A stretch of 61,247 bases of DNA from Candidatus Colenecus caballi (GTDB taxonomy: Bacteria; Bacteroidota; Bacteroidia; Bacteroidales; Bacteroidaceae), in the NCBI GenBank assembly GCA_018065615.1, contig JAGHSY010000039.1, forward strand, positions 1 through 61,247, read 5' to 3'. The notes under the pieces are model-generated. The model made no database searches. It was given only the letters and a program-made list of their open reading frames with translations, and was not told the origin of the DNA. Made by a program: the position numbers and the translations under genes. Below, one piece after another: positions 1 through 19,543 of this stretch. Position 1 is the first letter of the stretch; every line of letters starts with the position of its first letter.

Positions 1-1537
1 GAAGAAAACATTTTTCATTACAAGCCTGACACTGATTATGATGGCTTCTTGTTCAGACAACATGGCCTTGCAGGAGATGTCAAAGTCCGACACCTTCAGC
101 AGCTATATTGAATTTTCTGATGCCTTTGTAAACTCACAGACACGTACATCACTTGGCGTAGGCAAGACCTTCTCAATTGATGACAAGATTGGCGTATTCG
201 GTTTCCAGAAGGAAGACACCGCCAAGACCGAGACTCTTCTTTTCAACAACCAGATGGTCAAGTGCATTGACAGCATCAACGCAACATGGACCTACAGCCC
301 CAAAAAGTTCTGGGACAAGAATTCGACCTATGAATTCTACGCTTATTTCCCCTACTCGGCTGACTTCCAGTTCAACACAGCTACCAAGTACTTCTCACTG
401 GCTGACTTCACAGTTCAGAAGAACGTTGCCGACCAGATTGACCTGATGGTTTCAGAGCGCAACTACGCCAACGCCTTCAACACTGTAGAACTGACATTCC
501 ACCACATTCTGAGCAATGTCAACATTTATGCCAGCCTTTCTCCAAAAATGGACATGGAAGGCATAACCAGCATTGACATTCTGAATTTTGACATCAAGGG
601 TCTGAAGAGCACCGGTTCATACAAACAGACCGGATGGGAGGAAAACCACTATGCAACCGCATCATGGACGAACCTGTCAGGTGAATACAAATTCCCCGGC
701 ATAGGCTACGGCACAAGCACCATGCGCCTGACCACCAAGATGGAAAGCATTGCAACAGACCTTCTGCTCATGCCCCAGACCCTGTTCTACATTGACAACC
801 AGACTGAAGACCCTGTCATGGACGTACGCTTCAAGGTCAGTTATGCTGACAGCACAAGCGCAATCATAACCAAGTCTATCCGCCTGTCTTCAATAAGCGG
901 TGTCAACAAGAGAACAATGGCTACCACTCCTATCTACGAATGGCTGCCCAACAACAAGTACAACTACCTGCTGACCGTCAACCCCACATCAACAACCCGC
1001 ATCTGGACTGCTGACCACGATGGTTCAAACGGTGGCGGTGATAAGGAGCCCAGCGGCGCAATCTATGATCCCGACCAGCCCAACCAGATCATAATCTGGA
1101 CTGACACTGACGGTGACGGCAAGATTGATGACGGTGAGACCGAAATCGTTCCTCTGGTATGGGAAGACATTGACGGTGACGGTCTGCTTGAAGCAGGTGT
1201 TGACGAAGACGGTGACGGTCACATTGACAACGTTGATGGTGACAACACTACCACCACAACCGGCAGCGACCTGCACAATGACCCGACCGATGCCAACAAC
1301 ACAACCGGTCAGGATGGTATCCTTGTCTATGTTGATACTGACGGTGACAACATTCCTGATGACTGGCGCCAGCTTGAAAAGGATCCCGAGACCGGTGAAA
1401 TCGGTCCTGAAAAGGAACTTGAAGAAGCTACAATCGAATTCACCGCTCTGGTCAGCGACTGGGAGGAGGAATACGATGTAAACTACGAATTTACAAACAA
1501 CCGCGAGCTCAACGACTGGACTCCGCTTGTTCCCTGA
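1..1537 (+). CDS. Fimbrillin-family lipoprotein with Asp-rich calcium-binding-like tail (first two bases outside window)
   Basis: The reading frame is open from base 2 and starts Lys-Lys-Thr-Phe-Phe, so the ATG must end at base 1, with its first two bases outside the window. The signal peptide ends in a lipobox (LMMASC), so a lipidated surface or periplasmic protein is expected. Residues of about 30-330 carry the fimbrillin/Mfa-like pattern, including the family's 'FHHILSNVNI' strand. About residues 355-455 hold several DxDGDG loops (DTDGDGKIDDGE, DIDGDG, DEDGDG, DTDGDN), which resemble EF-hand or thrombospondin-3 calcium loops and are unusual in fimbrillins. It is the first visible gene of an operon with two more fimbrillins and two giant proteins. 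A role as fimbrial subunit or anchor is inferred. Confidence 0.85.
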   Translation, partial: KKTFFITSLTLIMMASCSDNMALQEMSKSDTFSSYIEFSDAFVNSQTRTSLGVGKTFSIDDKIGVFGFQKEDTAKTETLLFNNQMVKCIDSINATWTYSPKKFWDKNSTYEFYAYFPYSADFQFNTATKYFSLADFTVQKNVADQIDLMVSERNYANAFNTVELTFHHILSNVNIYASLSPKMDMEGITSIDILNFDIKGLKSTGSYKQTGWEENHYATASWTNLSGEYKFPGIGYGTSTMRLTTKMESIATDLLLMPQTLFYIDNQTEDPVMDVRFKVSYADSTSAIITKSIRLSSISGVNKRTMATTPIYEWLPNNKYNYLLTVNPTSTTRIWTADHDGSNGGGDKEPSGAIYDPDQPNQIIIWTDTDGDGKIDDGETEIVPLVWEDIDGDGLLEAGVDEDGDGHIDNVDGDNTTTTTGSDLHNDPTDANNTTGQDGILVYVDTDGDNIPDDWRQLEKDPETGEIGPEKELEEATIEFTALVSDWEEEYDVNYEFTNNRELNDWTPLVP

Positions 1538-1550
1538 TAAACACACAAAA

Positions 1551-1581
1551 AAGCCGGTGGGGGTTGGTTCTCCCTCCGGTT
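1551..1581 (+). other. Intergenic hairpin after the first fimbrillin gene
   Basis: In the 58-base gap between the first two fimbrillin genes, AAGCCGGTGGG can pair with CCCTCCGGTT (one bulge, one mismatch, about nine pairs). No T-run follows, so it is not a standard terminator. It could attenuate or stabilise the upstream mRNA so that the first subunit is made in excess; this is inference. Confidence 0.35.
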
Positions 1582-1595
1582 ACAAAGATAAGGAA

Positions 1596-2654
1596 ATGGA
1601 AATGGACAAGATTATTAAGACACTGATGGCCGCGGCCGTGCTGGCACTGATGTCAGCATGCGTCAGACATGAGACCGAGGACCCTGATCTGGGCCCTACT
1701 GACAACATTTCCATGTTCCCTCAAATGGAAGACGTGTCGCGTTCCGTCATCAATTCCACCAAGGAACTTGAGAGCCATCAGATTGGTGTATTCGGATATA
1801 AGAGCGCATCAGGCGGGCATCAGCTTATATTTGACAACAAGACCCTTTACTATGATGCCGTATGGAAATATTCCGGCACCAGATATTGGGATAAAAGGGC
1901 AGGCTACTGGTTTGCCGCCTACGTCCCGTTCATGGGAACTTCCGGTTCAGGCACATACGTAAGCGAATCACAGACGGGCGGAGCCACATCGGACCACACG
2001 CTGACAATACACAACATTCCCAAATGGCAGACGGCAGACCAGGACGCCAAGGACATTATGACAGCACTGAGCAGCAACAGCGCAGCCTGGTATCTGGAGA
2101 ACAATGCCGGTGTGGTTGACCTCAAGTTCAGACATATCCTGTCACAGCTGGTAATAAAGGCATACTCAGTAAGTGAAGGCTCAGAATTCAAGGTGACAGG
2201 CATAAGCATTGGCGCCAACCAGAACGGCAGGCGCGTCCCCGACACAGGATCATACGACTACCAGTTGAACTACACAAGCGGCAGTGCCAGTTATAGTGTG
2301 CAGGCCAATTCCTATGGTGTGGAAATCCTGACAGACGGGGCCAAAGTACCTTATCTTAATGATACGGATAAAAAGGCCGCACAGTCACTCATTGTTTCAC
2401 ACAAGCTGGTAGCACCGTTCATATCCGATGCAACCGGCACAGAGAAAATACCAATCACCGTATCATACACCCAGGACGGCTATGAGCAGAATCCCGTAAC
2501 CATAAGTCTTGGCATATCACAGATGGAGCAGAGCAAGACCTACCTTCTGTATATCGAATTCAAGGACAGCGGCAACAAGATATCGGCATTGGACATACAG
2601 ACAATTGCATGGACCGATGTAATTGTTGACGACAGTAATTTCCACAACTGGTAA
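1596..2654 (+). CDS. Fimbrillin-family lipoprotein
   Basis: The start chosen is ATG 1596 (the next ATG, 1602, is nearly equivalent). The frame is open further upstream, but only from 1596 does the protein begin directly with a signal peptide and lipobox (ALMSAC). The mature part has fimbrillin family features: an early 'IGVFGYKSA' strand, 'WDKRAGYWFAAYVPF', and the diagnostic 'VDLKFRHILSQLVIKAY' segment. It shares this plan with the preceding and following genes, so the operon holds three paralogous fimbrillins. Expected to be exported by the Sec/lipoprotein route and assembled at the cell surface. It ends three bases before the next gene, so the two are co-transcribed. Confidence 0.85.
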   Translation: MEMDKIIKTLMAAAVLALMSACVRHETEDPDLGPTDNISMFPQMEDVSRSVINSTKELESHQIGVFGYKSASGGHQLIFDNKTLYYDAVWKYSGTRYWDKRAGYWFAAYVPFMGTSGSGTYVSESQTGGATSDHTLTIHNIPKWQTADQDAKDIMTALSSNSAAWYLENNAGVVDLKFRHILSQLVIKAYSVSEGSEFKVTGISIGANQNGRRVPDTGSYDYQLNYTSGSASYSVQANSYGVEILTDGAKVPYLNDTDKKAAQSLIVSHKLVAPFISDATGTEKIPITVSYTQDGYEQNPVTISLGISQMEQSKTYLLYIEFKDSGNKISALDIQTIAWTDVIVDDSNFHNW

Positions 2655-2657
2655 GAA

Positions 2658-3665
2658 ATGAAGATGAGACTGAAATATTCAATAATTGCTCTGGCTGCCG
2701 CCATGACACTGGCCTGCTGTACAGAAGAAAACGGCGGGTCTGATCTTGTCCGTCTGGCTCCGTCAGGCATTTCAGGCAGCAGCATTGTCGTGACCAGAGC
2801 CGCTGAGTACACGAACTTCAATCCTACAGACGGATTCACCATGGGGGTTTTCTGGAAAAGCAGTTCAGCAGAATCAACACCCTGCAGAGCGCAGGGACAG
2901 TTCACCTTTAAAGACAGCATCTGGAGTTCAGACGTCAGGCTGAAGAAGACCGAATACGATATCTTTGTCTATTCGCCAAAGAATGACAGCGCCACGTTCT
3001 ATCCGGACTCAAACAAACTGGTACTGCCGGCAATGACAGTCAGTGCCCACGATGTTCTTGTTGCGGACGGACTGAACGGCAAGGGGAAGGGCGTTTCTGT
3101 AGGCAATTACAGCTACACCCTTTCAGCAGACAAAAAAGATTTTGACGCAGACCAGATTCCGACAGACTCCATTGACCTTAAGATGTCACATCTGTTTTCA
3201 AAACTCACGGTCAAGATTGCAGTCTGCGCCGAATATGACTCCCTGCGCACAATCCATATAAATAAGGTGGAACTTGGTTCAGACAAGAGCGCCAAGGCAA
3301 CTGTCACGTTCACAGACCACGGAGCCGTCGTTGGGTGGTCTGACTGGAAGACCCTTTCAAAAATGGACTGGGCCGTAGCCCCATCGGACTCAGGACTTTA
3401 CCTGAACACTGACTATCAGACCTACGGAAGCGCCTACATGCTGCCCGAGGTTCTGTCAGGCAAGCAGAACCTGTCACTGCGCGTCACCTATGACGTCTAT
3501 GACAAGGCCGAAAAGAAAATACGTTCTTCAAACGAAACTGAGAACCGGCTGACAATTGAAGACGTAACACTTGAAAGCGGTAAGAACTACATAAAGAAGA
3601 TTCTCATTGAACCTTCTTATCTGGGCCGCCTGTCCGACAATGACGAACCGACACTGAAATTCTAA
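2658..3665 (+). CDS. Fimbrillin-family lipoprotein
   Basis: A 335-residue protein with a short signal peptide and lipobox ending LACC (tandem cysteines). The fold pattern matches fimbrillins: 'FTMGVFWKSS', 'YDIFVYSPKND' and the 'IDLKMSHLFSKLTVKIAV' segment corresponding to the family's FxHxLS strand. It lies between a second fimbrillin (three-base gap) and the first giant repeat protein (six-base gap). It is the shortest of the three paralogues and could be a minor tip or anchor subunit, but the sequence does not decide this. Confidence 0.83.
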   Translation: MKMRLKYSIIALAAAMTLACCTEENGGSDLVRLAPSGISGSSIVVTRAAEYTNFNPTDGFTMGVFWKSSSAESTPCRAQGQFTFKDSIWSSDVRLKKTEYDIFVYSPKNDSATFYPDSNKLVLPAMTVSAHDVLVADGLNGKGKGVSVGNYSYTLSADKKDFDADQIPTDSIDLKMSHLFSKLTVKIAVCAEYDSLRTIHINKVELGSDKSAKATVTFTDHGAVVGWSDWKTLSKMDWAVAPSDSGLYLNTDYQTYGSAYMLPEVLSGKQNLSLRVTYDVYDKAEKKIRSSNETENRLTIEDVTLESGKNYIKKILIEPSYLGRLSDNDEPTLKF

Positions 3666-3671
3666 GAAAAA

Positions 3672-6600
3672 ATGTTCACAACCCGATACATAATAAGCAA
3701 AGCAGCCCACACACTCCGTCACGCGGGGCTTGCACTTGCCGTCCTTATGTCTTTGCCTGCACAGGCCATTGACATTAAGGGAAATGTTTATGGTGGCGGA
3801 AAGGAAGGCCAGGTGGGCACCCCGCAGGACAGCGCCCATGCGGTTGTGGACATTCTAAGCACAACGGTCAATGACGTGTTCGGCGGCGGACTGGACGGAG
3901 CAGTCTATGGCACAACCACAGTGAACCTGAATGACGGTACAGCAAAAAGCGTGTTTGGAGGCGGTTCCAATGCGCTTGTTGACGGTATCTGTACAGTCAA
4001 TTTCAACAGCGGATTCGTTCTGGACAACATATACGGCGGCGGACGTCTGGGACGCACTGTAAGGACCAGTGTCAACATGACCGGCGGATATGTAGGCTAC
4101 ACTGATTCCGGCACAAAAAAGCTTGGCAACCAGAACGGCAACATTTACGGCGGCGGTTACGGTGAAAGCGCTGTGGCACTGAACACTTCTGTCAAAGTTG
4201 ACGGCGGTACGGTAGGCAACAGCCTGTACGGCGGCGGTGAAATTGCCGCTGTAGGTGAAGCCAAAATCATTGCCAACGGACGCCAACGCTCCTTGAGCAC
4301 AAATTCCGATGACATTGCCGCACGTAAGGCAGGCAGCACAAGCGTCATTCTGAATGCAGGACTTGTTGAAGGCTATGTGTTCGGAGGCGGTCGCGGATTC
4401 AGCTTTGATGAGGACAGCATAATGCAGCTTGGTCAGACGCTCCATGCAGACGGTTTCGTATTCGGAAAGACAAGCGTAGGAATATACGGCGGAACAGTTG
4501 GAACAGCCGCAACGCTGAAAAGCGGTGAAGGCGGCAGCGTGTTCGGCGGCGGCAACATGGGTTATGTGTTCTCACTGGACGGAACAAAGGCCGATGACGG
4601 GTTCTACTATGACAGTCAGGACAGGATGACAGAAGACTGCAAGGTCATTATTGAAAGCAGGGACGGAAGCAAAGTCAGCATTCTCAATGCGGTATATGCC
4701 GGCGGAAATGTGGCCCAGGGTTCAGACCTTGTCTATGCCAACACATATACCGTCTTTGGAAATGTGACCGCGACCATAAAGGACGCCACGGCAAGTGAGA
4801 ACATCACCATCGGACGTGACAGCGTGGGCGGTCTTTACGGTGACGGCAACCTGACTCTGGTTGACGGCTACCGCGAACTGAATGTGACCAACTACGGCAA
4901 CACCGTTTCATCGGGCCGCATTCTGAACACCATTCAGAGAGCTGAATACTGCGGTCTGAACAACAGCCGGCTCATACTCAAGGGCGCACGTGACCGCGTG
5001 ACTGACGCCGCAGACTTCACGGACTACACATTCAACCGCGTAGGTGAACTTTCACTTAACAACGGCAGCTACGCCGGCATTTACAACGTGGTCAACCTGC
5101 TGGGCGGAATAACATCGGACGTTGATTTTTATGACGGCATTCGTACCGCCGGGTCCGATGCGGCCGACGGCTCCACATACCAGGCATGGAAGGAAGAACG
5201 CGCAACTGCTGACAACCGCAATGATGCCACAAGCACCAACGGGATAGGCATGGCCAGCGGTGTCTGGCTTGAGATTCTCAAAGCCAAAAACGGTGAAGAC
5301 AAGACCTGGGGCCCTGTTACCGGTGTCATCCAGCTTGATCTCATTGACGTTGCCACAGGTGACGGCGGCGGTTTTGTCTATGCAAAGAACATTCACGGAA
5401 CACGCACGTCAAACCAGCCGGCAGAACTGCTTGCCAAGGCCAATGACGGTCTTGTCAGCAACCGTCTGTTCACGTATGACACAGATGACAACGATTATGA
5501 GACATCGGGCAACTTTGTCAACGTAATGAATACCCGGTTCATTGTCGATGACTGCTATCCTGACAAGACATCACACACATCACCCGCACACATGTGGTAC
5601 GTGAAGGGCGCAAAATACGAATACAACCAGCTGATTTCCGCATACACCGGCGCTTCGCAGGCTTTCTCGGACCAGCTGAGCGTTCCATTCGCAAACATGG
5701 GCGGACAGATGGAACTTGTATCAGTTGAAAGCACGCTTGCCGATGAGGATGGCACCAACCTTATGGACCATGCCCACGGATTCCTGCTGACCCTTGACTG
5801 GAACAACCCGACAGCATGGAAGAAAAATGAAAGTCCCGCACCGTCATTCCTGTTCACAGGTTCGACAAGCGTGTTCGGACAGATTGACTACACTGTGGGC
5901 GACCTTATTGATGAACGTACCAGAACCGCTTACAACAATCTGGTAACACAGGCCGGTTCAAGCATGCCCGGCGGTCAGGCAGAATTTGAACGTTCATACG
6001 TTGCAAAGGAAGACACATACGCCAAGGTTGCAGAAGACACATACAAGTGGATTACGGTTGGAAGTGTCCTTTCCCAGACCGAATACAACCTCAATGACGC
6101 TGCCACAAAGGCTCTGTTCGAACCTGGAATGCGATGCATAGGCTCCCTGTTCATTGACGAGAACACACAGTACCTTTACAATGAAGTGATTCCGGAATCG
6201 GCCGTCAACAGCCTCTCTGAAGATGATCAGGATTATTTCAGCAAATCATACGTATGCACCGCAGCCGGCAAGTATGAAGGTCATCTGTATGAAAAGAACA
6301 AGAGCTACAACGCACTTGACTGGAACATCCTTTCAGACACCGAACGCAGCTACTTCACATTCAACAAGGATGCCCATGACCTGCTCACTAAAGACAACGC
6401 ATCAGTCTATACGACTGCCGCTACAACGGCTCTGACACCTTCACCCGTGGAGACAGCAACCGTTTACGTTGCCCGCGGAACAGACATAACCAAACTTGAG
6501 ACTGACCGTATTGTCACAGTCACATACAAGTACACCAAGGCAGGTGAACCCGATGAGACACATGTCATAAACATCCGCGTACATTTTGAGAGCGGTGCTC

Positions 6601-9251: not shown

Positions 9252-12200
9252 GAAATTTCAGAATATACCTTTGTCTGCTCCTGCTGGCTCTGACCGGCAG
9301 TTTGACGGCATCAGCCCAACGCACATACATCCGTCTCAGATGCACGGCGGCCAATGACGCATGTCTTATAATAAAATCCGATGCCACCATAGGCATACTG
9401 GCCAGCGGATCACTTTCAGCAGACTGCAACACCCACTGCAACTGGGCCGATGTGCCGTCAGGTAACGGACATCTGATATACCAGATCATCAACGGCAAGG
9501 AAATTTATCTGAAGGGCACGCCCCAGGGAATGACACTTACGGCTGAATCAAGTGAGGCTACTGTGTTCTATTACAATTCCACTTACAACCCGGTATTCTT
9601 TTACAGCAACAACCAGCGGTATTTCCCAAAGTACACCGACCACCTGTATGTGACAAACAATAATGATGAATGGGTCAATCCAATCACAATCGTACCTATT
9701 GAAAATGAAGGTGTCAGAATCGACAAAGACAATTTTGAAGGTGTCACCATTGAAAATTTCCCGCTCACACAGACCCAGGAGAAACAGTATGTGATTCTGA
9801 AGAATGACGGCTCGGACTATATTGCGCATAACGGAACAAACGTTTCGGTAATGACATCATTCAGCCCGGAAGTCTGCATCTGGACATCGACAGCCAACCT
9901 GACGAATGGAGCGACAATAGGCAGCACTGAGCGTCAGGCCCTGTCATTCAAGGTTTCAGGTACCACCTACACGCTATCAGGCCAGGGAGGCAGCATAAAC
10001 ACATCGGACTATAAAATCTGGGCTGTTACCGAGACCAGGAAGAATGCCGGAAGTGACAGGATTACCCTGACTGTCAGTCTGCCATCGGGCAACAGCAACA
10101 TGTATGCCGGTGAATCCAAGGAACTCAGCGTCAACGCAAGCGGATCCGTAACACCTGCTGCAACCGACTATGAGTTTGCCAATGCGCACCATTACTATAC
10201 GGACGGAGGCACATATCTTGGAAACAGCCAGACCATAACATATGACAGCCCGCTCATTGGGGCAAGCTGGAGCAAGAGCGGTGATACCGGCAGCAACACG
10301 TCGCTGAGCGGGACATCAAAGACCGGAGCAACGCTGAACTACAATACCGACTGCAGTGAACAGAGGAATATCAACGTCCGCATAACTGCAAGTTCTCCAG
10401 TATTTGCCAATGATATATACGCCGAATACAGGATTACTCTCATGAGCCTTGCATCAATAGGTTCGGGCAATTATGTATTCTATGCATCGGACCGTTATCT
10501 GAAAAATGACAACGGAACGATTGTCTCTGCCACCACGTTTGATCCGGCCACATGCATCTGGACTGCAAGCGGTTCAAACGGCAGTCTGACATTCAGCAAT
10601 TCAGGAAAATATCTCATTTCAGACAACGGTGACATATCACTTGGCAATACGGCCGACACATGGACATTAAGGAGCGCCCAAGGCGGCATACCGACTATGG
10701 ACGGCTATTACCTGCGCCTTGCCGGCACTACCTGGGCTCTTTCTTCCGATGCAGGTTCCTCATGTGCATATATTGTTACGACAACCACAAATAACACCCC
10801 CCAGATGACAGAGCCTGTAATCAGCGGCAACACAGACATAGGGGGAACAGGAACTTTCAATTACACGCATTCAAACGCTTCGTACATACCGCCATATACC
10901 GATTATGAATTTGGCGGCACACACCACTACTTCTGTACCCAGACAGGACTGGCAGACAGTCAGAGTGCACCGCAGTCCGTTCCATTCACATACACATGGT
11001 CTCTGTCTGCCAACGCATCGGGACACATGTCCGTAAACGGCAGCGGAACAGTCAGCTACACTACGGCATTTGAAGAAAACACCCAGGTTACACTGACACT
11101 GACAGCCACATCGGTCCCAAAGACATTCACCGCCACAAAGACCATACGGATACAGACATCACTGGGTGACATGTACTGCTACATTCGCAACGAATCACAT
11201 CAGTACGGACAAAACAATCCGAATGCGGGAGACTATTATCTTACAACATCAAACAACACCTACAACAACAGTTACAATTATATCTGTCAGAAGACCGATC
11301 CCGGTGACAACGAAATTTGGCTGCTTAGAAAATATGACGACAGTTATTTCCAGATAATACATGCAACTGACCAGCGGTATGTGATAACCAAAGCCAATGT
11401 TAATGATTATTTCCAGGCCTTCTATCTGTCCGAATCGGCACTGCAGGAAAACAATGACATTAACAACAGCCTTTTCATAATAGGCAAATGCGACAATGGT
11501 AACTGGTACATACAGCCAAAGAGCGCTGAGAACCAGAACCTGAGCTGGAACGCACGCAGCTGGGGTACGGAAGACATGTCTATGTATGCCTACCAGGGTA
11601 CTGATGATGCCGGTTCGCGCTGGATTCTGGAACAGCAGGAATACACTCCTGTCAAGGAAGGTGTCTGGCACATTCAGAATGCGGTGGACAACGGCAGTTA
11701 CATTGTTACCGACAACACAAGGGCTTATCTGGCCGACGGCAGTGCAGACAACATGCCAAGCACTTCATACTGGACTCTTAAGCGCAACGGCAATGTGTAC
11801 TATCAGCTTGTCAGCCAGGACGGAAGGTATCTGACCGTAGGCAACATGACCGCCAACTCGACAACAGACGGCAGCAATTCCACCGTCCTTACAAGTACAC
11901 CTGGCAATATTGACCAGACTCTGTTCCGAATCGGATCTACAGGAGACGGCAATTACTGCATTGTCCCCAAACTGGCAGGCCGCAACATGTCTCTGACTTC
12001 ATATAGCGACAAGACCAGGACCATTGGCTGGCGATACTGGGGCGGCGACTACGGACGTGCAAAATGGAAATTCATTGAGCCCAAAGGTGCCGGTGCAGGC
12101 AAATACGTCATTGAAAACAATGGTAAATACCTTGCCAACGTAAACGGAACCGTAACTGCCGTCAGCGACTTCAACCCCGCCACATGTATCTGGACGGCAA

Positions 12201-15200
12201 CCGGCAGTGGCGGCAACCTGAGTTTTGCAAACGACGGCAAGTACCTGCAGGACAACAGCGGTACGGTAACACTGTCTTCAACCGCATTTACATGGAATGT
12301 CAACAAGTCCGTATCGGGCTCCATCAAATCAGGCAGCAGTTTCCTGCATGTTTCAGGAGACAACTGGGTGGTTGACGGAACGACGGCAGAATCGGCCTTC
12401 ATCATCACAGCCTCGAATACTGAAAGCATCGGTTCCGAGCCTGCCATTACGACCGGTCCTTCCACAATCAGCGCCACCGGAAGTTTCCAGTACGGATACA
12501 CACCGGCAACCTACATCAACGCCCACAGCTACACATGGAACGGCACGGAACACTTTGTCAGCCCTGACGGACTGACTTGGTACGGCACCGTAAGGCCGCA
12601 GTCCGAAACGTTCACCTACACATGGAGCGTTTCCGGCAATGCACAGGGATACATGACAGTCACAGACGCCGGTCTGCTTAAATATGAGAACGAATTCGAG
12701 TCACCGGCAACGGTAACACTGACCTTGACGGCCCAATCGGCTTCAAAGAAATACACTGCCACCAAGCAGATAAGCATAAGTGTGGCAGGATACTGCGCAC
12801 CTGCCGGCAAATATGTGATTTACAGCGGTGAACATTTCCTGCGCAACAACTACGGCATTCAGGCAACGACCGATTTTTCACCGGGCAGCTGCATCTGGAC
12901 TGCCACAGCCACAGAACAGAACGGGCGCAACTGCCTGTATTTTGAAAACAACGGTACCCGTCTGAACATAAACGGCAACCAGTACTGGATTGTAAATGAT
13001 GACAGTGAAGGATACCTGCAGGCTCTTGGCAGTGAAAACGTTTTCCTTGCATACAATCCGCAGAACAACTCCTGGAGCACAGGCAACACCCCGGACGGAT
13101 GTGCGTATGCAGTCACCGGCCCTACGTACCATGACAATCTGAATACAAATCCGGCAATTGACACGGAAGAAACGGAATTCAGCGAACTGCGCTCATACAA
13201 GTTCTTCATTTCGACTCCGGCCCAAATCATTGAAGCCTATGACGAATATGTGCTCAAGGACGGTCCGCACCTTTATGTCAGGAACAATGTGTTCATAGGA
13301 ATAAACAAGCCCGAAACCGAGCTTTTCCTTTACACTTGGTCTATAGATGACGCGACAGGACATACGACAGTGGACCAGAACGGTAACCTGACATACAACC
13401 AGTCATTTGCAAGCAACACCCAGGTTAAAGTCACGCTTACCGCAAAGAGAAGCAAGGACAACTCGACCAGGAGTGCATCAAAGGAAGTGACCATGAAGGT
13501 TGCAGAATCAAGTTACATCAACGCCAAGTATGAGGACCTGTACTGCTACATAATCAATCATGGAGAAGATCCGAACAGCACTACCAAATATTATCTGTAT
13601 CCGTCATCGGACGGCTACCATCTCAGAACACACAATTCCAATGATGGAAATGCCGTATGGATTCTGCGCAAGTTCAACGATGAGTCCTATCAGCTTATCC
13701 ATGCCGCTACAGGAAAGTATGTGATTGCAAACTCAACATCACAGGGAGCCCAGGCTGTCCATCTGGAAGCAAATGCAAACAATCTGACATACAGTCTCTT
13801 TGAATTGGGTGAAATTGTAATGGATCAGTACGGTTACTACATCAGACCCAAATCATCGGTTGTCAATGAGGAATTCGGACTGAGTTTCAATCCCTTCAAC
13901 GGTAACGGAAATGACATAGGACTGTATCCTGTGAAAGACGGTAACCACAACAAGATTGGCGGTTCCATGTGGTTCATTCAGGAAGCCAAAGTGGCCACGC
14001 CCATCATTATGGCCGAAGACGGAAAGATTTCAATAACCACCACCACTGCCGGAGCTGAAATCCATTATACCACAGACGGTTCAACGCCCACCAAGTCATC
14101 ACCCCTGTACACCGGACCGTTTGAATTCCAGGACGGCAACACAATCAAGGCCATAGGCATTTCCAATGACTATCTTGATTCCGAGATTGCCACCCAGAAG
14201 ATTCACATGATTTCATCACTGTCTGAGATACCCGATGACGGTGCAGACGGCTATTACGTACTGACAACAGACATTGAAGCACCTGCCGGCTACACGACCA
14301 AGACGAACTTTACCGGCGTGTTTGACGGCGGCTACCACACCATTTCAGGACTTGACGCACCTTTGTTCTACAATACCGTTGACGCCATTGTCAAGAATGT
14401 CAGACTTGACAACGTCAACATTACCGGAACAGGCAATCTGGGTGCAATAACATGTCTGGCCAAGGGCAGGACGGTAATAATCAACTGCGGCGTACTTGCA
14501 TCACAGTCATCGGTCATAAAGGGCGGATCAAACGTGGGCAGTATAGCAGGACAGATAGAAAACAAGTCACGTGTAGTCAACTGCTACAGCTTTGCATCGG
14601 TCCAGGGTACCACTGCCGGCGGCATTGTAGGCAGCAATTCCGGTACGGCATCGGTCATCGATGACATTCGTACAATGGTAATGAACTGCATATTCTACGG
14701 TGACATTGACGGCACTCACATTTCACCGGTTTATGGAGGTACGGCCATCGAGAACCGAAACAACATAAACACCTACACATTCTACCAGGCGTTCGATAAT
14801 GAGGGCAATATAAAATTCAGCGCTACCGATGTGGACAACTCAATGCCTGTAACTGACAACAGTTATCTTGACCGCTTTGAGTTCTACCGCAACATGCTGA
14901 ACTCACACCGTGAGCTGGCCGCTTTCTATGCCTTTGATGACCATACCCGTCTGGATCAGATAGGAAAATGGATTCTTGAACCCGCTGTTGCCCCCTATCC
15001 CATTGTCTCCACATGGAAGACTCATACAAGAAAGACCCTTGACCGTGTAATCCCCAATACGACAAACGCTATGCAGGGCCGCCAGTTGGGTACAATACCT
15101 GTCACATTCATCATTCAGGGACAGAACAAGACCATTACCAGAACGTATGATCTTCCTATAACCGATATGGATACAGCCCGATGGGATTTCACTGCAAACA

Positions 15201-17377
15201 AGATTGTACTGCCGTTTGCAAATGAAATATACCCCGAAGATCCTACCTGGAGACCACGTGTACCCGACAGCCAGGACGAATACAAGTCCATGATAATTAC
15301 AGGTTGGGAATGCACATCAATAAGCGGCGGAACCGTCGGATCAAAACAGACTGACTATGACGGTGACGGCACAGGACGTGACTATAACTTTGCTGACCCT
15401 GATTGCACGGCAAAGGACATCTTTGACATATCGGGAGCAAATTCACGTGATGCGAACGGTTCCCGTGACGCCAGCTTCAACCCGTTCGTCTATGCCCAGG
15501 GCGGCAATTTCGTTGTCCCGACCGATGCTACGGCCATGACATTCACAGCCCACTGGGCCACATGCGTATATCTGTCCGATGCAGGTGAGGACGTTGCCTA
15601 CAACCCCGAATTCACCGAATCGACACAGATAGGAAGCTATTCATGGGAAAACCGCACTGAAACAATTATCAGTTCAAGTTTCCGTGACGTGTCATACCGC
15701 GACGGCTGGACAGTCACAACCACCCCTGCTACCGACGGCTATCCCGACGGTCAGGGTGAACGCTGGGACAACATAAGTGACTTCCTTGAGTTCTACCGCT
15801 ATGACGGACAGCACAGTTTTTCCATAATACAGGAGGTAAAGGACATGGAACCAGGCACATATATGCTGCGTTTCTACGGATTCTCACGTCATGGAGACTA
15901 CGCGTACAACAATCAGGCAAAGTCCTATAACAACATGTACGGTACTCACTCATACATCTATGCAAAGCAGAACGGAGTGGAACTGGGCAAGGACACGCTG
16001 AAATCAGTCTATGACCATACCGCCCAGGAAGTGAACGCCGTAATGGAAGGCTTTGACGCATTCAATGCAAACGCACAGAACAACTTGGACGGTTACGTGC
16101 ACTCAATCAGTGCCGCAAAGATAGCATTCAATCATGGTTACTACATGAATGAAATGATATTCGAGGTCACAACCAAGGGCAATGTGGAGATTGGCATATA
16201 TTCGGACTTGATGCCCCAGAACTCATGGGCCACATTCCGTGACATGAGGCTCTACAAGCTGATTGATGACAAATTCACAGACTCGTTCTATCAGGAAAAG
16301 AAGGTTGTGCACAACATAACCGATGCCCTGTCAAAGATGTCTGAGAATGAGATTCCCAACAACCAGGCAATTGTTCTGGTAGGCAACTATCACCTCAACG
16401 ACCGCATCATAGGCAACTCCTTTGCCCAGGGTACCGGTGCCCTTAGCCTGAACAAGGCCCTGACGTTCATGTCAACCGATGACAACTTTGACCAGGAGCC
16501 CGACTACTGCATGTACATGTACACGTCCAATCCTACAGGTATAAGCCGTACGGATACTCCTCCATTGCGCTTTGACTTCCTGACATGCCCGGGCATAGGA
16601 ATGGCCGCGCGTGTCAGCGGATCATCGGCCGTACCGGGCATAGGAATATGGCATACGCGCGGGTGGTATGAAACGACCGAGACATATCTTGGAATACATT
16701 CCGAGGCCGAAATCAACCCGTCATACAAGCAAGACAGGTGGATGTCACCATGGATAATAAACGGCGGCATTTATGACCGCATAATATGCAACTTTGACGG
16801 TGAACGCAACCTGAACACCAACAACAACGCATACATACGTCTGGGCGGCAGTGCCCTGATACGCCAGTTCCATCCGGGCAATCATGATGACAAGAATTAC
16901 ACCACTTATCTTGTTCCGGTCAATGTTAGCGGCGGTGAAATAGAGCAGTGCTACATGACCGGACGTGAGGGCAGCACATCGGCCCCCAGGACCAGCGGAA
17001 ATGTACGGTTCTGGAGCAACGGCGGATACATTCATGAGTTCCTTGGAGCATACATGGCACCAGTGAACGGCAACGTCACAGCCAAAATAGACCACGCCAT
17101 TTTTGACAACTTCTACGGAGGCGGCATGAATGCCAACCAGCCTGTCAAGGGCAACATTGACGTTGAAATAAACAACAGTCTGGTCAAATACTATGTGGGC
17201 GGCCCCAAGGTCGGTGACATGGAACAGAATACCAACGTTACCACCAGCGCAAAGGTACCACGTTCGGCAGTTACTTTGGCGGCGGCTACGGCGGCACATC
17301 AACGGCACGACGCACCGTTTACAACGAAACCGTGGGCGTTGAGGTCAGTATTTCCGATGACCTTCCCTACCCTGTAG
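9248..17377 (+). CDS. Giant mosaic surface protein, N-terminal 2.7 kaa of a frameshifted gene
   Basis: Begins with a signal peptide (LCLLLLALTGSLTASAQ). Visible modules in order: four related lectin-like repeats with a 'FxPxxCIWT' core (about residues 180, 408, 953 and 1189); Ricin-B-like stretches between them; a chitobiase C-terminal-type domain ('IHYTTDGSTPT', about residues 1582-1655); a GLUG-like region ('FDGGYHTISGL', about 1690-1800); a carbohydrate-binding-like region (about 2118-2338); and the GGG-turn repeats starting near residue 2620 ('FYGGGMNA'). After Lys at 17252 the frame turns into unrelated sequence and stops at 17377, while the GGG repeats continue in the -1 frame. The intact protein would be about 2976 residues. 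Starts inside the stop of the first giant gene. Probably a glycan-binding surface adhesin. Confidence 0.72.
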   Translation: MRNFRIYLCLLLLALTGSLTASAQRTYIRLRCTAANDACLIIKSDATIGILASGSLSADCNTHCNWADVPSGNGHLIYQIINGKEIYLKGTPQGMTLTAESSEATVFYYNSTYNPVFFYSNNQRYFPKYTDHLYVTNNNDEWVNPITIVPIENEGVRIDKDNFEGVTIENFPLTQTQEKQYVILKNDGSDYIAHNGTNVSVMTSFSPEVCIWTSTANLTNGATIGSTERQALSFKVSGTTYTLSGQGGSINTSDYKIWAVTETRKNAGSDRITLTVSLPSGNSNMYAGESKELSVNASGSVTPAATDYEFANAHHYYTDGGTYLGNSQTITYDSPLIGASWSKSGDTGSNTSLSGTSKTGATLNYNTDCSEQRNINVRITASSPVFANDIYAEYRITLMSLASIGSGNYVFYASDRYLKNDNGTIVSATTFDPATCIWTASGSNGSLTFSNSGKYLISDNGDISLGNTADTWTLRSAQGGIPTMDGYYLRLAGTTWALSSDAGSSCAYIVTTTTNNTPQMTEPVISGNTDIGGTGTFNYTHSNASYIPPYTDYEFGGTHHYFCTQTGLADSQSAPQSVPFTYTWSLSANASGHMSVNGSGTVSYTTAFEENTQVTLTLTATSVPKTFTATKTIRIQTSLGDMYCYIRNESHQYGQNNPNAGDYYLTTSNNTYNNSYNYICQKTDPGDNEIWLLRKYDDSYFQIIHATDQRYVITKANVNDYFQAFYLSESALQENNDINNSLFIIGKCDNGNWYIQPKSAENQNLSWNARSWGTEDMSMYAYQGTDDAGSRWILEQQEYTPVKEGVWHIQNAVDNGSYIVTDNTRAYLADGSADNMPSTSYWTLKRNGNVYYQLVSQDGRYLTVGNMTANSTTDGSNSTVLTSTPGNIDQTLFRIGSTGDGNYCIVPKLAGRNMSLTSYSDKTRTIGWRYWGGDYGRAKWKFIEPKGAGAGKYVIENNGKYLANVNGTVTAVSDFNPATCIWTATGSGGNLSFANDGKYLQDNSGTVTLSSTAFTWNVNKSVSGSIKSGSSFLHVSGDNWVVDGTTAESAFIITASNTESIGSEPAITTGPSTISATGSFQYGYTPATYINAHSYTWNGTEHFVSPDGLTWYGTVRPQSETFTYTWSVSGNAQGYMTVTDAGLLKYENEFESPATVTLTLTAQSASKKYTATKQISISVAGYCAPAGKYVIYSGEHFLRNNYGIQATTDFSPGSCIWTATATEQNGRNCLYFENNGTRLNINGNQYWIVNDDSEGYLQALGSENVFLAYNPQNNSWSTGNTPDGCAYAVTGPTYHDNLNTNPAIDTEETEFSELRSYKFFISTPAQIIEAYDEYVLKDGPHLYVRNNVFIGINKPETELFLYTWSIDDATGHTTVDQNGNLTYNQSFASNTQVKVTLTAKRSKDNSTRSASKEVTMKVAESSYINAKYEDLYCYIINHGEDPNSTTKYYLYPSSDGYHLRTHNSNDGNAVWILRKFNDESYQLIHAATGKYVIANSTSQGAQAVHLEANANNLTYSLFELGEIVMDQYGYYIRPKSSVVNEEFGLSFNPFNGNGNDIGLYPVKDGNHNKIGGSMWFIQEAKVATPIIMAEDGKISITTTTAGAEIHYTTDGSTPTKSSPLYTGPFEFQDGNTIKAIGISNDYLDSEIATQKIHMISSLSEIPDDGADGYYVLTTDIEAPAGYTTKTNFTGVFDGGYHTISGLDAPLFYNTVDAIVKNVRLDNVNITGTGNLGAITCLAKGRTVIINCGVLASQSSVIKGGSNVGSIAGQIENKSRVVNCYSFASVQGTTAGGIVGSNSGTASVIDDIRTMVMNCIFYGDIDGTHISPVYGGTAIENRNNINTYTFYQAFDNEGNIKFSATDVDNSMPVTDNSYLDRFEFYRNMLNSHRELAAFYAFDDHTRLDQIGKWILEPAVAPYPIVSTWKTHTRKTLDRVIPNTTNAMQGRQLGTIPVTFIIQGQNKTITRTYDLPITDMDTARWDFTANKIVLPFANEIYPEDPTWRPRVPDSQDEYKSMIITGWECTSISGGTVGSKQTDYDGDGTGRDYNFADPDCTAKDIFDISGANSRDANGSRDASFNPFVYAQGGNFVVPTDATAMTFTAHWATCVYLSDAGEDVAYNPEFTESTQIGSYSWENRTETIISSSFRDVSYRDGWTVTTTPATDGYPDGQGERWDNISDFLEFYRYDGQHSFSIIQEVKDMEPGTYMLRFYGFSRHGDYAYNNQAKSYNNMYGTHSYIYAKQNGVELGKDTLKSVYDHTAQEVNAVMEGFDAFNANAQNNLDGYVHSISAAKIAFNHGYYMNEMIFEVTTKGNVEIGIYSDLMPQNSWATFRDMRLYKLIDDKFTDSFYQEKKVVHNITDALSKMSENEIPNNQAIVLVGNYHLNDRIIGNSFAQGTGALSLNKALTFMSTDDNFDQEPDYCMYMYTSNPTGISRTDTPPLRFDFLTCPGIGMAARVSGSSAVPGIGIWHTRGWYETTETYLGIHSEAEINPSYKQDRWMSPWIINGGIYDRIICNFDGERNLNTNNNAYIRLGGSALIRQFHPGNHDDKNYTTYLVPVNVSGGEIEQCYMTGREGSTSAPRTSGNVRFWSNGGYIHEFLGAYMAPVNGNVTAKIDHAIFDNFYGGGMNANQPVKGNIDVEINNSLVKYYVGGPKVGDMEQNTNVTTSAKVPRSAVTLAAATAAHQRHDAPFTTKPWALRSVFPMTFPTL

Positions 17378-18180
17378 GCTTTGCATCCTATTCAGGGCGC
17401 CGTCTCAAGTACGAGCAGGGGTACGGCATAGCCACAGGCTACGGATTCGAATACTTCTTTGAGGCCGGTGGCCAGGGCAACCTGATCAGCCGTTTCTTCG
17501 TTGACTATTCGTCACTGTCACTTGCAACCGTAAGAAACGTTTCAAACACACTTGAAGAATGCAGTATTCTCAATGACTTCTACGGCGGCGGACGACAGGG
17601 CTATGTTAACGGCAACGTAACATCAACCTTATCGGACTGCACAGTAAACGGAAGTGCATTTGCCGGCGGTTATACCGGACGTTACAAGGAAACGCCCGTG
17701 GCAACAGCCACCAAACCCGAATACTCCACATATCTGTTCCACATGGGCGTGTTCACCCCATTCGGAAAGACAGAGAACGAGACCTACCATTGGGAACAGG
17801 TCCCCACCCTGGACAGTTATTCCAACGCCAATACCAAGGCCCTGTTCACCACTACAGACATGTCACTCATGGGCAAGGTCAACGGCACCACATCACTTAC
17901 CGTTGAAGGAAAGACCATGATAGAAGGCAGTGTGTTCGGAGGCGGAAATCAGGCCGATGTCAACGGCTCCACCAATGTGGTCATAGTCAGTGATGACACT
18001 GAAATTGCCGGTACCGTGTTCGGCGGCGGCAACGAGTCAAATGTGACTAAGGACACCGGACAGGCATCGGGCAACACCCGTGTTACCATTACCGGAGGCA
18101 GCATTGCCGGTGACGTGTTCGGAGGCGGCAACAAGGGCAACGTTGAAGGAAATCCGCATGTAACTGTCGGGCAGGAATAA
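17332..18180 (+). CDS. C-terminal part of the frameshifted giant GGG-repeat protein
   Basis: This reading frame continues the preceding giant protein: from 17251 it reads Lys-Gly-Thr-Thr-Phe-Gly-Ser-Tyr-Phe-Gly-Gly-Gly, the expected repeat. The first ATG in this frame is 17332, but it is unlikely to be a true start because it lies inside the repeat domain. It carries more [FY]-G-G-G turns ('DFYGGGRQG', 'SVFGGGNQA', 'TVFGGGNES', 'DVFGGGNKG'). It ends abruptly at '...VTVGQE' with no sorting domain, unlike the first giant protein, and a terminator follows directly. If the frameshift is real, this segment is either silent or made only by -1 slippage. Confidence 0.7.
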   Translation: MGVEVSISDDLPYPVGFASYSGRRLKYEQGYGIATGYGFEYFFEAGGQGNLISRFFVDYSSLSLATVRNVSNTLEECSILNDFYGGGRQGYVNGNVTSTLSDCTVNGSAFAGGYTGRYKETPVATATKPEYSTYLFHMGVFTPFGKTENETYHWEQVPTLDSYSNANTKALFTTTDMSLMGKVNGTTSLTVEGKTMIEGSVFGGGNQADVNGSTNVVIVSDDTEIAGTVFGGGNESNVTKDTGQASGNTRVTITGGSIAGDVFGGGNKGNVEGNPHVTVGQE

Positions 18181-18204
18181 ACAAAGGGGGGCGTCCCCCT
18201 TTGT
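18181..18204 (+). terminator. Strong hairpin terminator of the surface operon
   Basis: ACAAAGGGGG and CCCCCTTTGT form a perfect 10-bp stem around a GCGT loop, directly after the stop at 18180 and followed by a T-rich stretch. It closes the fimbrillin/giant-protein operon. Confidence 0.85.
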
Positions 18205-18248: not shown

Positions 18249-19538
18249 ATGAAAAGGATAACTGCTATTCTGGCTACAGCATTGCTGTGCCTGCCATTCC
18301 AGGCCAAGGAAAAGGACGAGATAATCAAAACCGGTTGGAACCTTGGACCGCTCCCCGTTGTGGGGTTCGATTCCGATTTGGGTTTCCAGTACGGCCTGTG
18401 CTGTGACTTCTTCAATTACGGTGACGGCACGAACTACCCCCAATACAATTTCAAGATCAATGTCGAGGCATCGACCTATACCAAAGGTTCAAGTGTCCTG
18501 CGCAGCTACGGTGACTTCAAGACACTGATACCGAACGGCAAGCTGTTCTATGACGTAACCTATTTCAACGCGCCCAAGTTCGGGTTCTACGGTTTCAACG
18601 GCCTTGCCGCACCTTATGACAAGGACAAGAAGTTAAACGGTAATGCCGATGCAAAATCAGGCTTCAACTTCATGTCACGCAACCAGTTCCGTGCCATTGT
18701 CAGCATTCAGAAACAGATTGCCGGACCGTTGAACTGGGCGGCCGGACTTGCCTTCTACCACACGACATTGGCAGGACTCGGGCTTGAAGAATATGAAGGT
18801 CAGACCACTCTGTATGATTTATATAAGTTGCCGGATGTGGGCCTTATCCGTGAAAATGAGAAGGACGGCGGCAATGTGACTCAGCTAAGAGCCGGACTGA
18901 CCTATGACACGCGTGACCATGACAGCGACCCGTCAAAAGGAATGAACATTGAGGCCACCCTTGTTTACAGTCCTGACATTATTGACGGGAACGGATATGA
19001 CAATCTTGGATTCACCTTCATGGGCAGCCACTTTGTCCCTGTCATCTCAGACAAACTGACTTTTGCATACCGTCTGCTGGTACAGGCCAAGCTGTGGGGT
19101 GAAATACCGTATTACTTCACGAACAATGTCAACACAATGTTCTTCAGGAAAATGTACACTGAAGCCATTGGCGGAAACGCATCGGTACGCGGACTCAACC
19201 GCAACGGCGTTCTGGGTGACGGCTTTGCCATGCTGAACATGGAACTGCGCTGGCATGCCGTAGATTTCCAGCTTATCAACCAGAACTGGTCCATCGTTCT
19301 CAATCCGTTCTATGATCTGGGCCGTACCATCCAGCCATACCGTTATGAGCAGCAGAAAGCGTCTCCAATTACCGGCATCTGGTCCGGACAGGCCGATGAC
19401 ATGCATTACACAGCCGGACTCGGGGTCAAGATCATCATGAACCACAACATGGTGCTTTCCATTGAAGGAGCCAAGGCTCTGCTGAAGAATGACGGTTCGG
19501 GTCTGTGGACCAACGTTGGATTCAACTACCTGTTCTAA
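18249..19538 (+). CDS. POTRA-less Omp85-type outer-membrane barrel protein
   Basis: The start is ATG 18249, just downstream of the promoter and at the head of a signal peptide (ITAILATALLCLPFQA). The frame open further upstream would cross the promoter. The 429-residue product is almost all amphipathic beta-strands and contains 'IGGNASVRGLNRNG', matching the VRG[FY] motif of the Omp85/BamA/TamA barrel. No POTRA repeats fit in front of it, so it belongs with short barrel-only Omp85 proteins known in Bacteroidota. Expected in the outer membrane; cargo unknown. A paralogue follows six bases later and a G3E GTPase after that. Confidence 0.75.
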   Translation: MKRITAILATALLCLPFQAKEKDEIIKTGWNLGPLPVVGFDSDLGFQYGLCCDFFNYGDGTNYPQYNFKINVEASTYTKGSSVLRSYGDFKTLIPNGKLFYDVTYFNAPKFGFYGFNGLAAPYDKDKKLNGNADAKSGFNFMSRNQFRAIVSIQKQIAGPLNWAAGLAFYHTTLAGLGLEEYEGQTTLYDLYKLPDVGLIRENEKDGGNVTQLRAGLTYDTRDHDSDPSKGMNIEATLVYSPDIIDGNGYDNLGFTFMGSHFVPVISDKLTFAYRLLVQAKLWGEIPYYFTNNVNTMFFRKMYTEAIGGNASVRGLNRNGVLGDGFAMLNMELRWHAVDFQLINQNWSIVLNPFYDLGRTIQPYRYEQQKASPITGIWSGQADDMHYTAGLGVKIIMNHNMVLSIEGAKALLKNDGSGLWTNVGFNYLF

Positions 19539-19543
19539 AACAG

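What the first reader, a model, noticed from the sequence alone, without database searches (positions are those of the whole stretch)
1..18180. Operon joining three fimbrillins with two giant GGG-turn repeat proteins
Five genes with gaps of 58, 3, 6 and -4 bases and one terminator encode three fimbrillin paralogues and two proteins of 1859 and about 2976 residues. Both giants share [VIL]-[YF]-G-G-G turns, often 25-45 residues apart, which I cannot assign to a named family. One has a T9SS-like tail; the other has lectin-like, chitobiase-C and GLUG-like modules. The arrangement suggests a combined fimbria and solenoid-adhesin system, possibly undescribed.
Basis: partly seen in the sequence, partly recalled or inferred. 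Interest (0 to 1): 0.72.

Follow-up and report, generated by a model that had tools for sequence, protein, structure and literature searches.

The report
Fimbria cluster with giant secreted proteins
Gut bacteria related to Prevotella carry a conserved gene cluster that joins surface-fibre subunits to very large secreted proteins with an unclassified glycine-rich repeat, probably making oversized sticky fibre tips; the layout resembles a known system of an oral bacterium, but the main giant protein matches no known domain apart from an export tail.

Summary
The gene layout is real: three Mfa_like_1 fimbrillins, then a 1859-aa protein (G1) and a second giant (G2), gaps 58, 3, 6 and -4 bases. G2 is broken by a frame slip near 17,250 into 2709- and 282-aa ORFs; a same-genus relative has it whole (3021 aa). 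[VIL][YF]GGG motifs far exceed chance in G1 but lie only near the end of G2. The window is not unique. Of 216 relatives of G1 in named genomes the best 80 were kept; in 74 of 77 with an uncut 5' end one fimbrillin class is the next gene upstream, and in the other 3 it precedes a split giant. Giants have a median near 4000 aa, so the window's is a short form. A T9SS sorting tail is recognised in 60 of 79 tails at E <= 0.01 (30 of 79 at about the curated cut-off); the window's own is below cut-off. The genome has a T9SS sortase. No solved fold matches G1. Best reading: a type V fimbria whose ancillary or tip adhesin is T9SS-exported, laid out like mfa1-mfa5 of Porphyromonas gingivalis, with a different-looking giant in the Mfa5 place. 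Docking on the fimbria, one transcript and a solenoid fold are not shown. New variant of a known kind.

The parts
2..1537 (+). fim1: fimbrillin (Mfa_like_1), lipobox ...MMASC, candidate Arg maturation site SQTR-TSLG, C-terminal DxDGDG acidic repeats; cut by the contig start (first ATG in frame at 38)
   Evidence: PF13149 E 1.3e-25; Arg column; 36-nt direct repeats, four copies within 1102-1368
1596..2654 (+). fim2: fimbrillin of my class F2, lipoprotein-like, candidate Arg site DVSR-SVIN
   Evidence: PF13149 E 2.6e-18; class F2 is second upstream of the giant in 64 of 72 loci that have a second upstream gene
2658..3665 (+). fim3: fimbrillin of my class F3, lipoprotein-like, candidate Arg site VVTR-AAEY
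   Evidence: PF13149 E 1.2e-9; class F3 is the next gene upstream of the giant in 74 of 77 loci and precedes a split giant in the other 3
3672..9251 (+). G1: secreted giant, short form (1859 aa); GGG repeats at residues 39-294, conserved 330-690, conserved 925-1859 ending in a degenerate T9SS type A tail
   Evidence: motif count, relatives, alignments A1-A4, TIGR04183 in the family's tails
9248..17377 (+). G2, first piece (2709 aa): ricin-lectin-like, chitobiase-C/Fn3_assoc and GLUG-like stretches; frame lost near 17250
17218..18180 (+). G2, second piece: frame open from 17218 (282-aa ORF from 17332) with GGG repeats and the conserved C-terminal GGG cap
   Evidence: aligns to residues 2719-3020 of the 3021-aa ORF of G003; cap alignment A5
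18181..18204 (+). hairpin after the cluster, possible terminator; palindromic, followed by GCATTTTATC rather than a long T run

Best explanation
A type V (Mfa/FimA-like) fimbria cluster of a Bacteroidales gut bacterium in which the ancillary or tip adhesin is a giant T9SS-exported protein instead of a vWA-type Mfa5. Proposed steps: fim1-3 are made as lipoproteins, moved to the outer surface and cut after a conserved Arg (inferred from the sequence signature and known type V biology). They assemble by strand exchange into the fibre (established for the family, inferred here). G1 crosses the inner membrane by its signal peptide and the outer membrane by T9SS through its C-terminal tail, and docks at the F2/F3 fimbrillin end as a long adhesive head (inferred from conserved adjacency and from Mfa5). 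G2 is a second large secreted adhesin with carbohydrate-binding-like modules; its route across the outer membrane is unknown. Shown here: gene order, families, tail signature in the family, sortase in the genome, conservation. Not shown: assembly, ligand, transcript.
For: PF13149 in all three small proteins. Arg or Lys at the expected position in 22 of 23 F1, 77 of 78 F2 and 86 of 88 F3 rows, the window row counted twice in each. Class F3 is the next gene upstream of the giant in 74 of 77 testable loci, median gap 32, at most 100 bases in 64 of 74; in the other 3 it precedes an ORF that aligns to the N-terminal part of full giants. Same order on a 3.55-Mb contig of a one-contig genome (G264) and in two records not marked as MAGs, Prevotella sp. 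tc2-28 and tf2-5 (L097, L135). T9SS type A tail in 60 of 79 tails at E <= 0.01 and in 30 of 79 at E <= 6e-5. T9SS sortase NF033707 at 1016 bits, cut-off 420, in the window's genome, and over the cut-off in 0 of 14 control genomes. A second copy of the plan in the same genome: contig 14 has five fimbrillins, a 3685-aa relative of G1, a 403-aa and a 2328-aa ORF. Precedent: Mfa5 is T9SS-exported, encoded after mfa1-4, an ancillary tip protein, N-terminally variable and sometimes in tandem (PMC7835359 and PMC8313007, passages).
Against: The window's own G1 tail is below the TIGR04183 cut-off, 19 of 79 tails do not match at E <= 0.01, and loose matches to that short model are unspecific: at E <= 0.1 it rang in 6 of 14 control genomes, over the cut-off in 1. 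No vWA or other Pfam domain in G1. Homology to Mfa5 itself was not tested. G2 and the downstream GGG proteins whose ends I saw end in a GGG cap or another tail, so their export is unexplained. G2 is broken in this genome. No assembly or expression data. 11 of 25 same-genus genomes had no G1 match, two of them rated 97% and 100% complete, so the cluster is accessory.
Confidence: 0.58

Rival explanations
1. The giants are free-standing T9SS surface or matrix adhesins (SprB- or S-layer-like in role) that are only co-transcribed with the fimbriae and are not part of the fibre.
For: T9SS tails would suffice for surface display; T9SS cargo up to several hundred kDa such as SprB is known (PMC10202324, passages); some downstream GGG proteins are very large (11862 aa).
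Against: Co-regulation alone does not explain why one fimbrillin class keeps the place next to the giant (74 of 77 plus 3 split cases), while the genes after the giant vary in number and size.
Confidence: 0.27
2. Two-partner (FhaB/FhaC-like) secretion: the Omp85-family barrels at 18249-20791 export G2.
For: Both genes follow G2 on the same strand and hit PF01103 above its cut-off; the first also hits ShlB weakly (E 0.0004, below cut-off).
Against: A hairpin separates them from G2. In G003, the one relative with an intact G2 counterpart that I read, the next genes on that strand are two ORFs of 156 and 425 aa that do not look like barrels. The best family match of the first barrel is the general Omp85_fam.
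Confidence: 0.04
3. The giants are large proteases or toxins carried to targets by the fimbria.
For: PF05342 (M26 IgA1 protease N-terminal region) matches part of G2 below its cut-off (E 5e-6), and the A3 profile gives a weak PDB match to a putative IgA1 protease (3n6z, E 0.016).
Against: No HExxH in G1 or in either piece of G2; no enzyme domain above cut-off in the Pfam and NCBIfam scans; the M26 match covers only the GLUG-like stretch of G2.
Confidence: 0.04

Closest known systems
mfa1-mfa5 fimbrial cluster of Porphyromonas gingivalis (type V fimbriae) with the T9SS-exported tip protein Mfa5
   Same: Fimbrillins followed by a large T9SS-tailed protein; Mfa5 is an ancillary tip protein; mfa5 varies in its N-terminal half and can be present twice in tandem (PMC7835359, PMC8313007, passages)
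   Different: Mfa5 genes are 2946-6615 bp with vWA and Ig-like domains in some genotypes; here the giant is usually about 4000 aa, has GGG repeats and shows no such domain. Homology to Mfa5 was not tested.
Type V pili of gut Bacteroides (anchor, stalk and tip pilins)
   Same: Mfa_like_1 lipoproteins with an Arg maturation site (the link is recalled); [quoted passage not shown]
   Different: There the binding domain is part of the tip pilin; here it would be a separate giant encoded next to a fimbrillin.
SprB and other giant T9SS adhesins of Flavobacteria
   Same: Very large T9SS-secreted surface adhesin (PMC10202324, passages)
   Different: SprB serves gliding motility; that it has no fimbrillin partners and unrelated repeats is recalled, not tested

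Membership tests
Type V fimbrillins (Mfa_like_1) | PF13149 domain above curated cut-off | tested here: met
   91.3, 67.4 and 39.0 bits against 27; the family rang in 1 of 14 control genomes, a Bacteroides
Type V fimbrillins (Mfa_like_1) | Lipoprotein signal and Arg/Lys maturation site before the first strand | tested here: met
   Seen by eye in all three window proteins; R or K in 22 of 23, 77 of 78 and 86 of 88 aligned rows, window row counted twice; crude lipobox pattern in 21 of 23, 69 of 78 and 76 of 88. That this Arg is the cleavage site is recalled
Type V fimbria gene cluster | Anchor subunit (Mfa2/FimB type) in the cluster | tested here: inconclusive
   Window is cut by the contig start. 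G011 has a 411-aa DUF5119 protein beside an AraC-type regulator upstream of its fimbrillins; that it is the anchor is inferred
Type V fimbria gene cluster | Assembly by protease-driven strand exchange | not testable with these tools
   needs protein biochemistry
T9SS cargo (type A CTD) | TIGR04183 tail above curated cut-off | tested here: inconclusive
   Window tail 20.0 bits against 23, not met; family 60 of 79 tails at E <= 0.01 and 30 of 79 at E <= 6e-5, which I take as about 23 bits
T9SS cargo (type A CTD) | T9SS sortase in the same genome | tested here: met
   NF033707 1016 bits, cut-off 420; over cut-off in 0 of 14 control genomes
Mfa5 tip proteins | vWA and Ig-like N-terminal domains | tested here: not met
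   No Pfam match in G1. Of 42 N-side rows one matched ECR1_N_2 weakly, of 39 C-side rows one matched the sorting tail, none a vWA or Ig domain. Mfa5 genotypes D and E lack the vWA domain too
Mfa5 tip proteins | Common C-terminal half shared by all Mfa5 genotypes | not tested
   I had no full-length Mfa5 sequence at hand
Two-partner secretion exoprotein | Cognate TpsB partner next to the exoprotein | tested here: inconclusive
   Two Omp85 barrels follow, but beyond a hairpin, and they are not next to the G003 homologue; only one homologue was read for this
M26 IgA1 protease | HExxH zinc motif and peptidase domain | tested here: not met
   no HExxH; only a below-cut-off PF05342 match

The most novel reading that the evidence does not exclude
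A widespread but undescribed class of fimbria in rumen and gut Bacteroidales in which a dedicated fimbrillin pair (F2, F3) carries a roughly 4000-residue GGG-repeat solenoid exported by T9SS, with further GGG proteins of up to 11862 residues from the same cluster forming a long fibrous adhesive coat; the GGG rung and its conserved C-terminal cap would be a new solenoid family with its own way of being anchored or exported.
Probability: 0.3. Interest if true: 0.75.

Novelty: new variant of a known kind. Interest (0 to 1): 0.55.

Why it matters
[quoted passage not shown] A giant partner that keeps its place next to one fimbrillin class is a concrete candidate for a binding end, in lineages whose records come mostly from ruminant guts by their titles. 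G1 is also an unclassified protein: two alignments covering 1612 of its 1859 residues gave no Pfam match for the window protein. Two records that are not marked as MAGs, Prevotella sp. tc2-28 and tf2-5, carry the cluster, which would allow a direct test of whether T9SS cargo is built into type V fibres outside P. gingivalis.

Tried and rejected
GGG repeat as a known repeat: no Pfam model and no NCBIfam model apart from the tail in G1; among relatives only one sorting-tail match and one weak, probably chance match; no PDB relative by sequence for the N-side profile; no fold match at E <= 0.001 in PDB or viral models. Some of the ten sub-threshold PDB rows are beta-helix proteins as I recall their folds, but all had E above 1, so I give them no weight. 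Set aside: two-partner secretion by the Omp85 genes; M26 protease; mobile element or plasmid origin (no match among plasmid records; no relative confirmed in viral contigs). My F1 class proved loose: only 17 of 61 third-position genes were assigned to it.

The first scan of named genomes, with G1 alone, found no relative; the alignment query found 216. The family tally of 154 of 301 genomes is inflated by short matches to the tail or a GLUG-like part; counting only matches of 179 bits or more leaves 46 genomes in 9 of the 30 genera (counted by eye from the table). In L134 a stretch of 2319 bases without a picked ORF also lies between F3 and that ORF. I also corrected a too dark description of the first structure model and added the stricter tail count. 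I left the odds as they were.

Full report
What is in the window. The first 18.2 kb carry three fimbrillins (fim1 2-1537, fim2 1596-2654, fim3 2658-3665), a 1859-aa protein G1 (3672-9251) and a second giant G2 (9248 onward), all on the + strand with gaps of 58, 3, 6 and -4 bases. All three fimbrillins pass the PF13149 cut-off. The window is contig 93 of a 2.25-Mb, 125-contig genome, and its left edge cuts into fim1, so the real start of the cluster is missing. G1 has no Pfam match; G2 has ricin-lectin-like, chitobiase-C/Fn3_assoc and, below its cut-off, GLUG/M26_N-like stretches.

Correction on G2. As given, G2 is 2709 aa and stops at 17377; the rest lies in another frame, open from 17218 and ending at 18180. 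The two pieces align end to end (residues 2551-2719 and 2719-3020) with a single 3021-aa ORF in the same-genus genome G003. So the gene is broken here by a frame slip near 17,250, or the assembly is wrong; I cannot tell which.

The motif. [VIL][YF]GGG occurs 8 times in G1, all within residues 39-294, against 0.035 on average in 1000 shuffles; 0 times in the 2709-aa ORF; 3 times in the 282-aa ORF. In 77 relatives of G1 whose ORF is uncut (three of them the second part of a split giant) the median is 11, range 4-19, against a shuffle mean of 0.088. The motif is real, but between the window's two giants it is shared only through the end of G2.

The same cluster elsewhere. In the same genome, contig 14 holds five fimbrillins, a 3685-aa relative of G1, a 403-aa protein and a 2328-aa GGG protein. 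Of 41 genomes searched as relatives, 14 matched G1: 14 of 25 of the same genus (own included) and 0 of 16 from other families. An alignment query found 216 relatives in named genomes, of which the tool kept the best 80: records titled Prevotella, Prevotellaceae, Bacteroidaceae, Bacteroidales or Alloprevotella, many from ruminant guts by title, and two not marked as MAGs, Prevotella sp. tc2-28 and tf2-5. A first query with G1 alone had found none.

Gene order. I sorted upstream fimbrillins with profile models of my own, seeded from C-terminal patterns in the unnamed relatives and iterated on all ORFs of the 80 loci without regard to position; the class names F1-F3 are mine. Of 80 loci, 3 giants were cut at the 5' end. 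In 74 of the remaining 77 an F3 fimbrillin is the next gene upstream; the median gap is 32 bases, 64 of 74 are at most 100, the largest is 1114. In the other 3 (L102, L125, L134) an extra ORF lies between; it aligns to the N-terminal part of all 73 full giants tested, so the giant is split there, and F3 precedes it, in L134 across 2319 bases without a picked ORF. F2 is the second gene upstream in 64 of 72 loci that have one (3 of the 8 others are the split cases). F1 was recognised in only 17 of 61 third positions. Without the split cases, 74 uncut giants run from 2209 to 4835 aa, median 4007.5, so the window's G1 and its G003 counterpart (1904 aa) are short forms.

Downstream. Among 69 loci with a + ORF after the giant, 56 have a downstream ORF with at least two GGG motifs. 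Of 13 complete downstream proteins with ten or more motifs, 12 match a strict pattern for one conserved C-terminal GGG cap, and the thirteenth shows it by eye; the window's G2 end aligns with it. In same-genus genomes the last gene can be huge: an 11862-aa ORF with 154 matches of a looser motif in G007.

Distribution. The profile of the C-terminal half of G1 matched 154 of 301 family genomes at E <= 0.001, but many are short matches to the tail or a GLUG-like part; 46 genomes in 9 of 30 genera have matches of 179 bits or more (counted from its table). In a phylum sample 12 of 296 matched, only the window's own genome with more than 30 bits. The GGG cap profile matched 5 of 295 order genomes and 1 of 296 phylum genomes at E <= 1e-6, the own genome counted in both. 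The samples thus show the system centred on one family, with a few cases in two others.

Secretion and maturation signatures. The last 110 residues match the T9SS type A tail in 60 of 79 proteins at E <= 0.01 and in 30 of 79 at E <= 6e-5, which is about the curated cut-off by my conversion; the window's own tail scores 20.0 bits against 23. As a control, the model at E <= 0.1 rang in 6 of 14 well-known genomes, over the cut-off in 1, so weak matches alone prove little. The genome encodes a T9SS sortase at 1016 bits and two other places with tails above cut-off. An Arg or Lys at the expected maturation position is kept in 22 of 23 F1, 77 of 78 F2 and 86 of 88 F3 rows, the window row counted twice. 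That this is the maturation site is recalled from P. gingivalis fimbrillins.

Structure. A model of G1 residues 28-700 had mean pLDDT 71: low over about residues 28-157, mostly 80-97 from about 158 to 330, beta-rich throughout, without PDB or viral match at E <= 0.001. A model of residues 921-1859 had mean pLDDT 80.8, ends in seven short strands, and also had no match at E <= 0.001. The solenoid reading is plausible but unproven.

Known parallels. Mfa5 of P. gingivalis is encoded after mfa1-4, goes to the outer membrane by T9SS, is an ancillary tip protein, differs strongly in its N-terminal half between genotypes (genes of 2946 to 6615 bp) and is sometimes present twice in tandem (PMC7835359 and PMC8313007, passages read). 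This is the closest plan. The giants here are larger, show no vWA domain, and were not compared with Mfa5. The listings of ten searches of the paper library showed no paper on fimbrillins joined to giant GGG proteins; I saw titles and starts of abstracts of the rows listed, and subscription journals and preprints are mostly outside that library, so this is weak evidence of novelty.

Mechanism and verdict. The most likely reading is a type V fimbria whose tip or ancillary adhesin is an oversized T9SS cargo, with G2 as a second surface adhesin. Gene order, families, tails in the family and the sortase are shown; docking onto the fibre, ligand, one transcript and the solenoid fold are inferred. 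The main rival is a free-standing giant adhesin merely co-expressed with fimbriae.

Noticed in passing
G007:C104:35259-70847 (read from L064, L065 and L066): One open frame of 11862 aa with 154 [VILA][YF][GA]GG matches at the end of a fimbrillin-giant cluster; G020 and G022 of the same genus have 6442- and 7949-aa forms.
   Followed up: partly
C-termini of the large GGG proteins in G002, G005, G007, G009, G020, G022: A related polar tail, in most of the kind ATE followed by Arg-containing motifs, often after a Pro/Gln-rich stretch and unlike the T9SS tail (by eye); may be another sorting or anchoring signal.
   Followed up: no
window 1102-1368: fim1 has four DxDGDG-type acidic repeats after its fimbrillin domain, like calcium-binding repeats.
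   Followed up: no
window 18249-20791: Two Omp85-superfamily barrels in tandem after the cluster.
   Followed up: partly
window 36228-37973: Peptidase C10 with a Spi-type inhibitor domain, next to a 596-aa protein (37970-39760) without Pfam match at E <= 1e-5.
   Followed up: no
G000:C3 (L048) and G000:C118 (L047): Fimbrillins at contig edges beside ORFs of 408 and 404 aa that look like the DUF5119 protein of G011, and on C3 ORFs that look like its regulator (by eye); possibly the missing upstream halves of the two clusters of this genome.
   Followed up: partly
G000:C14:17210-18421 and G011:C18:13688-14863: An ORF between the giant and the second GGG protein in these two genomes; the G011 one matches Lnb_N and 5TMH_Lnb, the two were used together as query.
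   Followed up: partly
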